From the NCBI GenBank assembly GCA_003456855.1, contig DMOO01000185.1:1-7728 (forward strand): DNA of 7,728 nt, given 5' to 3'. The notes below the pieces were generated by a model that was not told where the DNA came from, did no database searches, and worked only from the letters and a program-made list of their open reading frames with translations. Of this stretch, positions 1-7,728 are shown in pieces; the stretch's first letter is position 1, and each line of letters starts with the position of its first letter. This stretch comes from Sphaerochaeta sp. Its GTDB lineage: Bacteria > Spirochaetota > Spirochaetia > Sphaerochaetales > Sphaerochaetaceae. Made by a program: the position numbers and the translations under genes.

Positions 1-1099
1 TGTTGCTGGCGCTGATGTAGCCCGGAACCTCCGGGAAGACATCGAGATCCGGATGGTTCGCCTTGTGGACTCCATAGCCTACGGCCTCAACAAGATAGGC
101 TGCCACCTTGCCTGACTTGAGGGCCAGAATCATGTCTGTAGGCATTGTATAGTACTGGAATTGTGTATCTGGAACGCGGTCCTGGATCAGCTCTTCGTAA
201 AGGACAGCTGTCTGTACGCCGATTGGAAGACCATTGAAGTCCTCGATCTTTGTGAATGAACTGACGGTGCTTGATGAGACTACAGGTGCAGTCTCCTCCT
301 CTGAACCCATGACAACAAGGTAGACAGGACAGGTGTAGTAGATGTCCGACAGAGTGCCTGTCTCGTTTCTCTCCTCGCTGACGACGATGTTCATTCCGAT
401 GTCGAACTTACCAGTCTCGACACCCGGTGCGATGGACTCGAACGGGATCTCGTTGAACACAGGCTTGTAGCCGTACTCAACGCAGAAGCGGCAGATGAAC
501 TCGACGTCGAAGCCTGCAAGGTTTCCGTCGCTGACGAATGAGAACGGCTCGTAACCACCCTCAACTGCGATGTTCAACGTCCCGTTCTCGCCTGTGAACT
601 CGAAGTCCTTGACTCCAACATTGTCGGTAAGCGGATCGAAATCGGCGATCCAGTACTGGTAGAGTGAGCCATCGTCGCCAAGAAGACCATTCTCATAGCC
701 CTTCTTGATGAACTCGTTCATCTCGGCAAGAAGGCGCTCCTGCTTGTCGTTGTTTCCAATGATGTTGCTGGCGCTGATGTAGCCCGGGACCTCCTTGAAG
801 GTTCCAAGCTCTGGATGGTTCGCCTTGTGGACACCATAGCCGACAGCCTCAACAAGGTAGGCTGCGACCTTGCCTGACTTCAGGGCAAGGATCATGTCGG
901 TAGGCATGGTGTAGTACTGGAACTCGGTGTCAGGAACACGGTCCTGAATCAGCTCCTCGTACAGAACGGCGGTCTGGACTCCGATTGGAAGTCCGTTGAA
1001 ATCCTCGATGGTCTCGAACTTGCTTGTGTCTATCGTGGCAGCGAAGACAGATGCACAGAGCAGGAGCATGGCAATAAGAGCAATAGCTATCTTCTTCAT
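1..1099 (-). CDS. Amino-acid ABC transporter substrate-binding protein with internal 254-residue repeat (3' end beyond left edge)
   Basis: This is a secreted family 3 (polar amino acid) solute-binding protein that would capture an amino acid in the periplasm for the ABC importer encoded just upstream. 366 codons are visible and the frame is still open at the left edge. Residues 1-20 form a signal peptide (MKK start, hydrophobic core, VFA before a likely SPase I site); Cys15 has Leu at -1, so a lipobox is unlikely. Residues 31-155 match only the C-terminal half of a family 3 protein (IEDFNGLPIGVQ start, ending near YQYW). Residues 172-267 are a normal N-terminal half (TLNIAVEGGYEPFSF, GFDVE at 196-200, and SEER at 241-244, whose Arg normally binds the ligand carboxylate). 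Residues 285-366 repeat residues 31-112. The start is fixed by GGAGG 9 nt upstream of the ATG, inside the end of the ATPase gene; the junction reads TGAGTATG, implying translational coupling. The amino acid bound is not predictable. A GlnP-like fusion to a permease domain further left is possible. Confidence 0.88.
   Translation of the reverse strand, partial: MKKIAIALIAMLLLCASVFAATIDTSKFETIEDFNGLPIGVQTAVLYEELIQDRVPDTEFQYYTMPTDMILALKSGKVAAYLVEAVGYGVHKANHPELGTFKEVPGYISASNIIGNNDKQERLLAEMNEFIKKGYENGLLGDDGSLYQYWIADFDPLTDNVGVKDFEFTGENGTLNIAVEGGYEPFSFVSDGNLAGFDVEFICRFCVEYGYKPVFNEIPFESIAPGVETGKFDIGMNIVVSEERNETGTLSDIYYTCPVYLVVMGSEEETAPVVSSSTVSSFTKIEDFNGLPIGVQTAVLYEELIQDRVPDTQFQYYTMPTDMILALKSGKVAAYLVEAVGYGVHKANHPDLDVFPEVPGYISASN
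2..247 (-). repeat. Internal coding repeat, copy B (residues 285-366 of the binding protein)
   Basis: Second copy of the 762-bp-period direct repeat. It probably continues past the left edge, because copy A remains binding-protein-like for another 40 or so residues. Residue changes against copy A are a Glu/Gln swap and a small cluster just before EVPGYISASN. Confidence 0.93.
764..1009 (-). repeat. Internal coding repeat, copy A (residues 31-112 of the binding protein)
   Basis: First copy of an in-frame direct repeat with period 762 bp (254 codons). It encodes the start of lobe 2 of a family 3 binding protein. By hand alignment 77 of 82 residues equal copy B, while about 29 codons differ synonymously. 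The duplication is therefore not recent, and both copies appear to be constrained at the protein level. Confidence 0.93.
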
Positions 1100-1101
1100 A
1101 C

Positions 1102-2214
1102 TCACTCCTCCATCCACTTGAAGCTCATGTCGATCTCGTTCTCACAACCATCCGGGTCATCAGTGAGCTTTTTCTCTGAGACTGTGGTTGTTGGCTCATC
1201 GAGCAGGGACAGGAAGAGTTTGCTTTCAGACTCTCTAGGGGTGAAATGCTCCTCTGCCTTGTACTTCACAAAGAGGTACAGGGTATCCTGCTTCTCCGAA
1301 TACTCGATCTTGACCAGAATGTATGGGTTGTCCGAGTAGTTGGCGATGTTGTTGATACAGATTTCCTCTATGGCAAGGCTGAGCTTGGTAAGACGCTCTG
1401 CCTCGATGAGCAGCTTCTCTCCATAGAGCTGGAGCTCTTCGTTCATTGCCTCGAAGTTGAACTCTGTGCTGTCGATCTTGTAGCTGAGAGTCGTGAGTCT
1501 CTGGACGAACTTCCTTGTAAGCTCCTTCTTTGGATGATCGAAGATCTCCTTTGGTGTTCCTTCCTCATAGATGACACCGTCAGCCATGAAGAGGACTCTG
1601 TTCGAGATCTTGCGTGCGAAGTCCATCTCGTGTGTGACGATCATCATTGTTCTTCCCGAGTTGGCAAGAAGCTTGATGACTGACTGGACTTCTCCGATCA
1701 TTGACGGATCCAATGCGCTGGTAGGCTCATCGAAGAGGATGATGTCCGGATCCATTGCCAGGGTCCTTGCAATTGCGATTCTCTGCTGCTGACCACCAGA
1801 GAGCTCGTCTGGATATGAGAACACCTTGGTTGCAAGACCGACCTGTGTGAGCAGGTACATTGCCTTGTCGAACGCCTCTTGCCTGCTTCTGCCAAGCAAG
1901 GTGATCTGAGGATTCATGATGTTCTCGATAACCGTGAGATGACCAAAAAGATTGAACGACTGGAAAACCATTCCCATCTTCTTTCTCACTTCGTTGAGGT
2001 CGCAACCTCGTGCTGTGATGTCCTGGCCGTCAACTATGATCTCACCGCTGGTCGGTTCGGTGAGCATGTTGATACATCTGAGCAATGTGGACTTGCCCGT
2101 GCCAGAAGGTCCGATGATGCTTATCACATCCCCGTTGTTGATGGTAACGTTGATATCCTTCAGTGGAATTGTGTTATCATCAAACTCCTTTCGCAAATGA
2201 CGCACTTCAATCAT
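1102..2214 (-). CDS. Amino-acid ABC transporter ATP-binding protein with RsbW/HATPase-like C-terminal extension
   Basis: This is the cytoplasmic ATPase of a polar amino-acid importer (GlnQ/HisP family). Numbered from the ATG at 2214 (370 aa), it has Walker A GPSGTGKST (35-43), Q-loop Gln85, signature LSGGQQQR (138-145), Walker B ending in catalytic Glu163, and switch His195, so the NTPase is complete by about residue 240, the usual family length. Residues 245-370 are extra. They resemble the RsbW anti-sigma/GHKL fold: a helix with EEICINN (Glu284, Asn288 at the N-box positions), a beta hairpin, then a helix LFLSLLDE and a final strand. The DxGxG and GLGL nucleotide loops are not recognisable, so this domain is probably a non-catalytic sensor or partner-binding module. 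I chose the ATG at 2212-2214 because MIEVRHLRK is the usual family start and AGGG lies 10 nt upstream. The ATG at 2221-2223 adds MRR but leaves AGGG only 1 nt away. The stop is 2 nt before the binding-protein start. Confidence 0.93.
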   Translation of the reverse strand: MIEVRHLRKEFDDNTIPLKDINVTINNGDVISIIGPSGTGKSTLLRCINMLTEPTSGEIIVDGQDITARGCDLNEVRKKMGMVFQSFNLFGHLTVIENIMNPQITLLGRSRQEAFDKAMYLLTQVGLATKVFSYPDELSGGQQQRIAIARTLAMDPDIILFDEPTSALDPSMIGEVQSVIKLLANSGRTMMIVTHEMDFARKISNRVLFMADGVIYEEGTPKEIFDHPKKELTRKFVQRLTTLSYKIDSTEFNFEAMNEELQLYGEKLLIEAERLTKLSLAIEEICINNIANYSDNPYILVKIEYSEKQDTLYLFVKYKAEEHFTPRESESKLFLSLLDEPTTTVSEKKLTDDPDGCENEIDMSFKWMEE

Positions 2215-2223
2215 TCTACGCAT

Positions 2224-5756: not shown

Positions 5757-7728
5757 ATGAAGCTAAATAATCTGAAACCTGGACAGACAGCAAGGGTCAT
5801 CTCCCTAGGCGGAGAAGGAGCCCTCAGACAGCATTTTCTTGATATGGGAATACTCCCGGAGACCGAGATGACCCTGGTCAAGCTCGCACCTATGGGCGAC
5901 CCTATGGAGTTCAGACTCCATGGCTATGAGCTTACACTGCGAGTATCCGACGCAAAGAACATAGAGGTGGAGCTCCTGGACAAGGCCACCGAGCAGAAAA
6001 CTCCGGCAAAGAAGGAGACCATAGAACACCCGGGTCTTGGTGAGGACGGAAAGTACCACAAGAAAGGAAGCGGAAACCCACTTCCAGAGGGCACTAGGCT
6101 CAAGTTCGCCCTTGTCGGGAACCAGAACAGCGGAAAGACCACCCTCTTCAACCAGCTCACAGGATCCAACCAGCATGTCGGAAACTTCCCCGGCGTCACC
6201 GTGGACAGGAAGGATGGAATGATCCGTGGTCAGGACAATGCGGTTGTGACCGACCTTCCAGGCATCTACTCCATGTCCCCATACTCCAGCGAGGAGCTTG
6301 TATCCAGGAACTTCATCCTGAATGAGAAGCCGCACTGCATCATAAACATAGTGGATGTGACCAGCATAGACCGCAGTCTCTACCTGACAATGCAGCTCCT
6401 TGAGCTTGGCATTCCGATGGTCTTAGCACTGAACATGATGGATGAAATGAAGGGTAATGGTGGCTCTGTGGACATCAATTCGATGGAAGCCATGCTTGGA
6501 ATTCCTGTAGTCCCGATCTCAGCCTCGAAGAACCACGGAGTCGACGAGCTCATCAGACACGCCGTGCATGTGGCCAAGAACCAGGAGGGTCCTCTGAGAC
6601 AGGATTTCTGCAGCTCAGACGACAACGGAGGCGCGGTCCACCGCTGCCTTCATGCAGTGATCCACCTTATCGAGGACCACGCCAAGGCTGCGGAGATCCC
6701 CACAAGGTTCGCGGCAAGCAAGATAATCGGCGGAGACAACCTGATCCTTGAGCAGCTCAAGCTCGATGACAACGAGAAGGAGATGCTTGAGCACATAGTA
6801 ATCCAGATGGAGAACGAGAGAGGCCTTGACCGCAATGCAGCCATTGCCGACATGAGATACGCCTACATCAGACGCGTCACCGCATCCTGCGTGACGAAAC
6901 CTGAACGCAGCGAGGAGCGAATCAGAAGCCAGAGACTGGACACCATCCTCACCGGAAAGTTCACGGCAATCCCGATGTTCATCCTGATCATGGGAACCGT
7001 GTTCTTCCTGACCTTCTTTGTAATCGGACCTTTCCTGCAGGACCTGCTTGCAATGGGAATCGGAGCACTTCAGGACGTTGTAGCCAGAGGCATGGAGTCC
7101 ATCAACGTCAACCCTGCGGTGCGGAGCCTTGTCATAGAGGGTATCTTCGAAGGCGTCGGAAGCGTTCTGAGCTTCCTGCCGTTGATAGTGATCATGTTCT
7201 TCTTCCTCTCCCTGCTTGAGGACAGCGGGTACATCGCCCGTGTCGCATTCGTCATGGACAAGCTTCTGAGGAAGATAGGACTTTCAGGACGAAGCATCGT
7301 ACCTATGCTCATAGGTTTCGGCTGCACGGTCCCTGCCGTCATGTCCACCAGGACCCTTCCAAGTGACAGGGACAGGAAGATGACGATTCTTCTCACCCCG
7401 TTCATGTCCTGCACGGCAAAGCTTCCTATCTACGGCTTCTTCGTCAACGCACTGTTCCCGAAGATCAGCTGGATACTGATCACAGCCCTGTATCTCCTGG
7501 GAATCCTTGTCGGGATCCTTGTTGCCCTGCTCTTCAAGAAGACTCTCTTCAAGGGAGAGGCTGTTCCGTTTGTCATGGAGCTTCCGAACTACAGGATGCC
7601 TCAGGCAAAGAACGTGATCAGACTGCTCTGGGAGAAGACGAAGGACTTCCTGCACAGGGCCTTCACCGTGATTCTGATTGCAACCATCGTGGTCTGGTTC
7701 CTCAAGAGCTTCGACTTCCACTTCAACC
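5757..7728 (+). CDS. feoB: Ferrous iron transporter, FeoA-FeoB fusion (3' end beyond right edge)
   Basis: This is an inner-membrane Fe(II) importer with a cytoplasmic G-protein domain. 657 codons are visible and the frame is open at the right edge. Residues 1-75 are a FeoA SH3-like domain (LKPGQTARVISL, FLDMGILP, GYELTLRVSDA). A charged linker (76-112) leads to the FeoB G domain, with GNQNSGKTT (121-129), the GNFPGVTVD G2 region, DLPG (166-169), NMMD (226-229) and SASKNHG (255-261), then a helical region. Membrane segments begin near 402. The FeoB gate motifs are present: GFGCTVPAVMSTR (520-532) and PFMSCTAKLPIY (548-559), both with their conserved Cys and Pro. The ATG is set by GAGG 6 nt upstream (5747-5750). 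FeoB is normally a separate protein from FeoA, but fusions are known. It is transcribed away from fusA and is probably iron-regulated, although no clear Fur box is seen. The missing end should carry the remaining membrane helices. Confidence 0.96.
   Translation, partial: MKLNNLKPGQTARVISLGGEGALRQHFLDMGILPETEMTLVKLAPMGDPMEFRLHGYELTLRVSDAKNIEVELLDKATEQKTPAKKETIEHPGLGEDGKYHKKGSGNPLPEGTRLKFALVGNQNSGKTTLFNQLTGSNQHVGNFPGVTVDRKDGMIRGQDNAVVTDLPGIYSMSPYSSEELVSRNFILNEKPHCIINIVDVTSIDRSLYLTMQLLELGIPMVLALNMMDEMKGNGGSVDINSMEAMLGIPVVPISASKNHGVDELIRHAVHVAKNQEGPLRQDFCSSDDNGGAVHRCLHAVIHLIEDHAKAAEIPTRFAASKIIGGDNLILEQLKLDDNEKEMLEHIVIQMENERGLDRNAAIADMRYAYIRRVTASCVTKPERSEERIRSQRLDTILTGKFTAIPMFILIMGTVFFLTFFVIGPFLQDLLAMGIGALQDVVARGMESINVNPAVRSLVIEGIFEGVGSVLSFLPLIVIMFFFLSLLEDSGYIARVAFVMDKLLRKIGLSGRSIVPMLIGFGCTVPAVMSTRTLPSDRDRKMTILLTPFMSCTAKLPIYGFFVNALFPKISWILITALYLLGILVGILVALLFKKTLFKGEAVPFVMELPNYRMPQAKNVIRLLWEKTKDFLHRAFTVILIATIVVWFLKSFDFHFN

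What the first reader, a model, noticed from the sequence alone, without database searches (positions are those of the whole stretch)
1..1099. Binding protein begins with half a binding domain, followed by a complete one
After the signal peptide, the protein goes straight into the lobe-2/C-terminal half of a family 3 binding protein (residues 31-155), then an N-terminal half (172-267), then the C-terminal half again (285 onward). The repeat unit is 254 residues. The architecture is signal-[C]-[N-C...]. Either an orphan half-domain precedes a normal domain, or the chain is built from permuted units in which halves pair across repeats. Tandem binding domains are known, for example in GlnP of lactic acid bacteria, but those are complete domains. 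What a free C-half does is unclear; it might swap into or cap the full domain.
Basis: partly seen in the sequence, partly recalled or inferred. Interest (0 to 1): 0.72.

Follow-up and report, generated by a model that had tools for sequence, protein, structure and literature searches.

The report
Circularly permuted nutrient-binding domains in tandem
The protein is not a binding domain preceded by a loose half: each repeat is a whole domain of a predicted amino-acid-binding kind whose two halves come in reversed order, an arrangement found alone or in rows of up to six in spirochaetes and other bacteria, where each copy likely catches nutrient for an import pump.

Summary
In detail: on the minus strand (1099 to 2) a signal peptide is followed by C-half, N-half, C-half of a family 3 binding protein, repeat 254 residues. 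The window stops inside the second C-half. Close relatives show the rest: signal-[C-N]-[C-N]-permease. Others have one [C-N] unit, more distant ones three to six. So the repeat unit is C-N, a circularly permuted binding domain, and no half is an orphan. Strongest support: 51 of 392 Spirochaetota genomes (my count of listed rows; ten checked further) carry a frame of 257-311 aa that is one C-N unit. One of these aligns to canonical AncQR in two swapped pieces, 29-144 to 109-228 and 165-259 (its last residue) to 9-104. Within arrays, co-variation favours pairing of each N-half with the C-half before it over the one after. The cut lies in the lobe-2 loop where, as recalled, glutamate receptors insert their channel. 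A permuted binding protein of another fold (TpMglB-2 of Treponema) is in print; my library searches gave none of family 3. The two-unit structure prediction failed. Ligand and transport are untested, and one or two origins is unsettled. New variant of a known kind.

The parts
1040..1099 (-). signal peptide (residues 1-20)
   Evidence: sequence MKK..hydrophobic..SVFA-A; cleavage site by eye, recalled motif, not predicted by a tool
644..1015 (-). unit 1, C-half (most of lobe 2 and the C-terminal part of lobe 1), residues 29-152
   Evidence: same stretch as the C-half model in P0125 (29-152); C-half profile matches PDB binding proteins at their C-terminal half
587..643 (-). joint inside unit 1, residues 153-171, joining the old C-terminus to the old N-terminus
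   Evidence: C-to-N joint: median 18 residues, IQR 17-18, n=636
305..586 (-). unit 1, N-half (first part of lobe 1 plus the hinge strand into lobe 2), residues 172-265, with ligand-type Arg in EERNETG
   Evidence: PF00497 175-267, profile 1-94/132; Arg at this model column in 617 of 633 units
254..304 (-). linker between units, residues 266-282
   Evidence: N-to-C linker: IQR 21-25.75, range 12-47, n=366, by model edges
2..253 (-). unit 2, C-half, cut by the window edge (residues 283-366)
   Evidence: repeat D1, 85% DNA identity to unit 1; start 254 residues after unit 1; continues into N-half and permease in P0019, which begins with the same 60 residues
1102..2223 (-). ABC ATPase gene immediately upstream, with a C-terminal extension of about 130 residues
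   Evidence: PF00005 E 4.7e-38; best NCBIfam matches TcyN and GlnQ, below their cut-offs; the same gene with the extension in 14 of 16 loci (the other two start after it) and 21 of 21 of L027-L047

Best explanation
The window's left end encodes a signal peptide, one complete circularly permuted family 3 binding domain (C-half then N-half) and the start of a second, and the chain likely goes on, as in its near relatives, to a second N-half and the permease of an ABC importer, predicted to take up a polar amino acid. The natural ends of an ordinary domain are joined by a joint of about 18 residues, and the new ends lie in a loop of lobe 2, just after the hinge strand. Both hinge crossings are thereby kept (inferred from the sequence map), so each unit should fold by itself, close on ligand like a Venus flytrap, and hand it to the permease; two permease chains and two ATPases would carry four binding domains here, up to twelve in the six-unit relatives (inferred from the usual dimer). 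Because the ends sit on lobe 2, each domain would be tethered by lobe 2 and not by lobe 1 as in ordinary fusions; what this buys is not known, my guess being that the anchor stays clear of lobe 1. Shown: order of halves, stand-alone units, arrays of 1-6, joint lengths, co-variation. Inferred: fold of the two-unit chain, ligand, transport.
For: Architecture: of 123 proteins (P0002-P0124, four of them my own translations) 96 are C-N-T, 25 C-N-C-N-T, 2 N-C-N-T; these two start inside an N-half. Of 52 found with the unit alone, 37 show both halves, all C before N, 11 only C, 4 only N. Of 121 found with the three-unit protein (query included), [C-N] x2/3/4/5/6 with permease in 15/24/47/23/2, 5 arrays without a detected permease, 5 that begin with N and all start inside an N-half. 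Stand-alone: 51 of 392 genomes, my count of listed rows; 10 of these read C-N with half-models, beside 26 canonical proteins that read N-C with the same models. L088: two swapped pieces against AncQR, 7.3e-25 and 1.5e-21, and against canonical L105 of the same phylum, 53% and 40% identical; 47 of 61 permuted-canonical pairs with hits show two swapped pieces. Operon binding protein-permease-ATPase at L088-L090. Joint length sd 3.0 inside units, 4.8 between. Co-variation, 363 N-halves in 146 proteins: top-20 score 4.30 for C_i:N_i, 2.69 for N_i:C_i+1, 1.30-1.56 in 8 shuffles; own above next in 12 of 12 half-samples. Fold: P0002 binding part, ten-residue blocks 64 to 95 pLDDT.
Confidence: 0.87

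Rival explanations
1. Halves pair across repeats: N1 with C2 forms a domain in the usual order, and C1 pairs with the last N-half or with the partner chain.
For: A profile search reads straight through N1 into C2 as an ordinary domain (172-340 to AncQR 9-170; P0177 417-640 over PF00497 1-131). The two-unit model failed, so structure does not exclude it. Next-neighbour co-variation is above the shuffles (2.69 against 1.30-1.56), though other wrong pairings within a protein score as high.
Against: One-unit fusions and stand-alone units have no other half to pair with, short of dimer swapping; the N-to-C linker is the more variable one; co-variation favours own pairing.
Confidence: 0.08
2. A free C-half caps or swaps into a normal N-C domain.
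For: In the window alone, C-N-C is what one would see. Eleven of 52 proteins show a C-half only.
Against: In the C-first proteins the numbers of C and N are equal and the last half is N; the 11 C-only proteins look cut or chimeric.
Confidence: 0.02
3. Assembly artefact: the repeat was collapsed or duplicated.
For: Residues 132-266 of the window's unit 1 are 134/135 identical to unit 2 of P0019 and 127/135 to its unit 1, which a collapsed repeat could give.
Against: The same C-N-C-N-permease order is in contigs of several separate MAGs and in 25 proteins, and C before N does not depend on the copy number.
Confidence: 0.03

Closest known systems
TpMglB-2 (Tp0684), circularly permuted glucose-binding protein of Treponema pallidum ('Type Ic'), PMC4990184 (passages read)
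   Same: natural circular permutation of an ABC-importer binding protein in a spirochaete; lipid-anchored, as 3 of the 5 stand-alone members I read in full appear to be (L089, L090, L096; lipobox by eye, recalled motif); the authors raise the possibility that the topology is an adaptation to anchoring
   Different: type I sugar-binding fold, cut elsewhere (the first three strands of EcMglB correspond to the last three, with a fourth hinge crossing); [quoted passage not shown] no tandem arrays mentioned in the passages read
GlnPQ of Lactococcus, two binding domains in tandem fused to the permease, PMC8025302 (passages read)
   Same: same binding-domain family and same kind of permease; domains before the permease in one chain; flexible linkers
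   Different: domains in the usual N-C order; two per chain, giving four sites per transporter; here C-N order and 1-6 per chain
OpuAC of Bacillus (2b4l), glycine betaine binding protein; L. lactis OpuA domain in PMC2861598 (passages read)
   Different: other ligand; 11% identity in the structural alignment; single domain, in L. lactis fused after the permease (recalled)
ionotropic glutamate receptor ligand-binding domain (S1-channel-S2)
   Same: the three-unit protein P0177 matches the S1 profile PF10613 (E 2.1e-20, three stretches, best ending at profile 109/115); the S1/S2 split at this loop is recalled
   Different: P0019, the window's own kind, has no PF10613 match at E <= 1; the membrane part is an ABC permease (PF00528), not a channel; the second half precedes the first and the membrane part follows both

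Membership tests
SBP_bac_3 (PF00497) binding proteins, cluster F | homology of the N-half | tested here: met
   66.8 bits against a cut-off of 26.4, profile 1-94/132
SBP_bac_3 (PF00497) binding proteins, cluster F | homology of the C-half | tested here: met
   22 of 22 PDB matches (E <= 0.1) of the C-half profile lie in the C-terminal half of such chains
SBP_bac_3 (PF00497) binding proteins, cluster F | N-half before C-half within one domain | tested here: not met
   C before N in all 37 two-half proteins and in the stand-alone members read; hence called a permuted variant, not an ordinary member
SBP_bac_3 (PF00497) binding proteins, cluster F | two-lobed type II fold | tested here: inconclusive
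SBP_bac_3 (PF00497) binding proteins, cluster F | binds an amino acid | not testable with these tools
   only residues: Arg in 617 of 633 units, Lys in 8; acidic column in 517 of 633; roles recalled
GlnPQ-type binding-domain/permease fusion importers | binding domains and amino-acid permease in one chain | tested here: met
   in relatives: PF00528 55.7 bits against 26.4 in P0019, architecture, 4yms_C; the window ends before the permease
GlnPQ-type binding-domain/permease fusion importers | partner GlnQ-type ATPase next door | tested here: met
   window 1102-2223: PF00005 over cut-off; GlnQ model 279.6 bits, below its cut-off of 379; conserved neighbour
GlnPQ-type binding-domain/permease fusion importers | domains in usual order | tested here: not met
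TpMglB-2 'Type Ic' permuted proteins | type I (Peripla_BP) sugar-binding fold | tested here: not met
   PF00497 is the only Pfam match at E <= 0.001; PDB sequence matches are of the family 3 kind
ionotropic glutamate receptors | channel pore between the halves | tested here: not met
   membrane part is PF00528 permease after both halves (P0019 and P0177)

The most novel reading that the evidence does not exclude
Family 3 binding proteins were circularly permuted at least twice, in spirochaete stand-alone proteins and in permease-fused arrays, each time at the one lobe-2 loop where glutamate receptors inserted their channel; the permutation moves the membrane tether to lobe 2, freeing lobe 1 and allowing beads of up to six receptors per permease chain, twelve per importer, each lobe-2 tether moving when its domain closes.
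Probability: 0.3. Interest if true: 0.75.

Novelty: new variant of a known kind. Interest (0 to 1): 0.6.

Why it matters
It would add a second natural permutation, in another fold, to the binding proteins of ABC importers, in the same phylum as the first, and so make the idea that permutation serves tethering testable. The arrays, up to six domains per chain, exceed the two per chain of GlnPQ and ask how many receptors compete for one pore. Family models read across unit borders, so existing annotations of these proteins are likely wrong on where each domain begins.

Tried and rejected
Structure of the two-unit protein P0019: failed, mean pLDDT 45.5; not used. Foldseek/VIA matches of the one-unit model: weak support only. 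Whole genome of the window: not held. A unit-alone protein search gave nothing that I recognised as stand-alone, only proteins that run into the permease, stop, or turn into other sequence (not every one of the 52 was read to its end); I would have called stand-alone units absent, but a broader model then found them. One or two origins: the tree puts 8 stand-alone members with canonical L105/L106/L115/L116 (93.8/96) and the fused units apart (93.7/93). Forcing one origin is rejected at p-AU 0.042 with all 66 units, but not (p-AU 0.116) with 56 after I dropped ten rows, eight canonical and two permuted, chosen by me as long-branched or loosely placed after seeing the first tree. Not settled. 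Plasmid search: 182 records with distant matches, none covering 80% of the query. The ATPase extension: HATPase_c_2 E 0.012, under cut-off; a profile of eight found no PDB match at E <= 1; left open. My notebook entry that the ATPase of the three-unit locus L050 lacks an extension is wrong: that locus was cut, and the longer L061 shows 363 aa. Papers: ten searches (two searches found nothing) gave no permuted family 3 binding protein among the titles listed; of these papers I read passages of PMC4990184, PMC10601554 (which mentions permuted ribose-binding constructs) and PMC8025302, and, by DOI, PMC2861598. The library lacks most subscription journals, so this is no proof of absence.

Full report
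What is there. The frame 1099..2 on the minus strand gives 366 residues and runs off the window. After a signal peptide come residues 29-152 (C-half), 172-265 (N-half) and a second C-half from 283 to the edge. The DNA repeat is 247 nt at 85% identity, 762 nt apart, which is 254 codons. Pfam sees only the N-half (PF00497, 66.8 bits, profile 1-94 of 132). A profile of the C-half of six relatives finds 22 PDB sequences at E <= 0.1, binding proteins or chains of that kind, all matched in their C-terminal half; a single C-half gave six weak matches, best E 0.042.

What follows outside the window. No whole genome is held for it. One scan of bacterial genome contigs gave 16 loci, all titled as Spirochaetales, Spirochaetaceae, Spirochaetia or Sphaerochaetaceae, six of them with rumen in the title. 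Their frames read signal-[C-N]-[C-N]-permease in L001-L006 and L008 (L008 has a masked stretch), and signal-[C-N]-permease in L010, L013 and L014; the other six are cut by contig ends. P0019, a 789-residue protein that starts with the same 60 residues as the window, has two units and the permease.

How general. Half-models made from three one-unit proteins were run over 123 proteins: 96 C-N-T, 25 C-N-C-N-T, 2 N-C-N-T; these two start inside an N-half. A search with the three-unit protein of L048, and models widened on its matches, gave [C-N] x2, x3, x4, x5, x6 with permease in 15, 24, 47, 23 and 2 of 121, five arrays with no permease found, and five that begin with N; all five start inside an N-half, so are cut. 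The lists are the best 120 of 2500 and of 857 scored matches, themselves from capped candidate sets. Names given by sources, for the few that have one, include Sphaerochaetaceae, Firmicutes, Clostridia, Synergistaceae and Anaerolineaceae.

Stand-alone units. A broader unit model found, in 392 Spirochaetota genomes, 51 genomes (my count of the rows listed) with a frame of 257-311 aa matched from model position 1-9 to 231-233 of 233, that is, one C-N unit and little else. Thirty have a longer frame (501-1030 aa) with a unit; 27 of these are the genomes, and the frames of G389, G156 and G272 were not read. 76 genomes have either, by the same count. The list was cut by the tool; its last rows match the N-half only, as ordinary proteins do. 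Ten of the 51 were read as C-N by half-models, while 26 canonical proteins from the same set of loci read N-C with the same models; loci without both halves, and identical sequences, were dropped and not counted. Five of the ten I saw as full sequence. At L088-L090 the order is binding protein, permease, ATPase. The L088 protein (259 aa) matches AncQR in two pieces: 29-144 to 109-228, and 165-259, its last residue, to 9-104. Against canonical L105 of the same phylum the pieces are 40% and 53% identical. This is circular permutation with the cut between AncQR 104 and 109.

Which halves pair. The joint from C to N within a unit has IQR 17-18 residues and sd 3.0 (n=636; range -26 to 23 by projected model edges), the linker from N to the next C IQR 21-25.75, sd 4.8 and range 12-47 (n=366; gaps over 120 left out). 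Their make-up does not differ. In a mean-field co-variation test on 363 N-halves that have a C-half on both sides (146 proteins, effective number 122), the top-20 score was 4.30 for the preceding C-half, 2.69 for the following one and 1.30-1.56 in 8 shuffles. Own led next in 12 of 12 half-samples; in the 110 N-halves with four C-halves to compare, own scored 4.85, the others 3.68-4.10, a smaller lead. Among the leading pairs are the last helix of the C-half with the first helix of the N-half (C98-N33), and C12 with N74, the loop after the first strand of the C-half with the Arg that binds the carboxylate in ordinary members (helices and role recalled, not measured). That Arg is kept in 617 of 633 units; an acidic ligand-type column is kept in 517 of 633, and in only 5 of 27 last units of three-unit proteins, so not every unit need bind the same thing.

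The cut site. The N-half keeps the hinge strand that enters lobe 2 (YYTCPVYLVV in the window; lobe assignment recalled from glutamine-binding protein), so both hinge crossings are inferred to remain. The three-unit protein P0177 matches PF10613, the S1 part of glutamate receptors, at E 2.1e-20, the best stretch ending at profile 109 of 115; P0019, the window's kind, has no such match at E <= 1. That receptors insert their channel at this loop is recalled.

Known or new. TpMglB-2 is a permuted binding protein of the type I fold in a treponeme, and its authors raise a link with anchoring (PMC4990184, passages). GlnPQ has two ordinary domains per chain (PMC8025302, passages). Ten library searches listed no permuted family 3 binding protein (see tried and rejected). 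I rate it a new variant of a known kind.

Origin. Two origins are favoured by the tree but not established: one origin is rejected at p-AU 0.042 and not rejected, 0.116, after I dropped ten rows.

Noticed in passing
window 1102-2223 (-), residues 241-373 of the ATPase: The partner ATPase has a C-terminal extension, weakly HATPase_c_2-like and under the cut-off, kept in 14 of 16 loci and 21 of 21 of L027-L047. Of five three-unit loci, two have ATPases of 363-364 aa with an extension not matched by the window's, one has a 248-aa ATPase, and in two none was found in the stretch fetched.
   Followed up: partly
L061 4176-5381 and L058 2265-4001: Next to three-unit arrays lie a STAS-phosphotransferase (APH) fusion and a MatE protein with an extra C-terminal stretch, which may point to partner-switch-like control of the importer.
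   Followed up: no
window 302-706 (-): Residues 132-266 of unit 1 are 134/135 identical to unit 2 of P0019 but 127/135 to its unit 1: gene conversion between repeats, or a collapsed repeat in assembly.
   Followed up: partly
L059 1704-2522 and 1-655 (-): A stand-alone permuted unit, and the start of another cut by the contig end, lie close to a three-unit array and a CstA-type gene.
   Followed up: partly
P0177 417-640, P0019 175-402: PF00497 reads from the N-half of one unit into the C-half of the next as if one domain, so family scans mis-place the domain borders.
   Followed up: yes
window 5757-7727 (+): FeoA domain (1-72) fused in front of FeoB.
   Followed up: no
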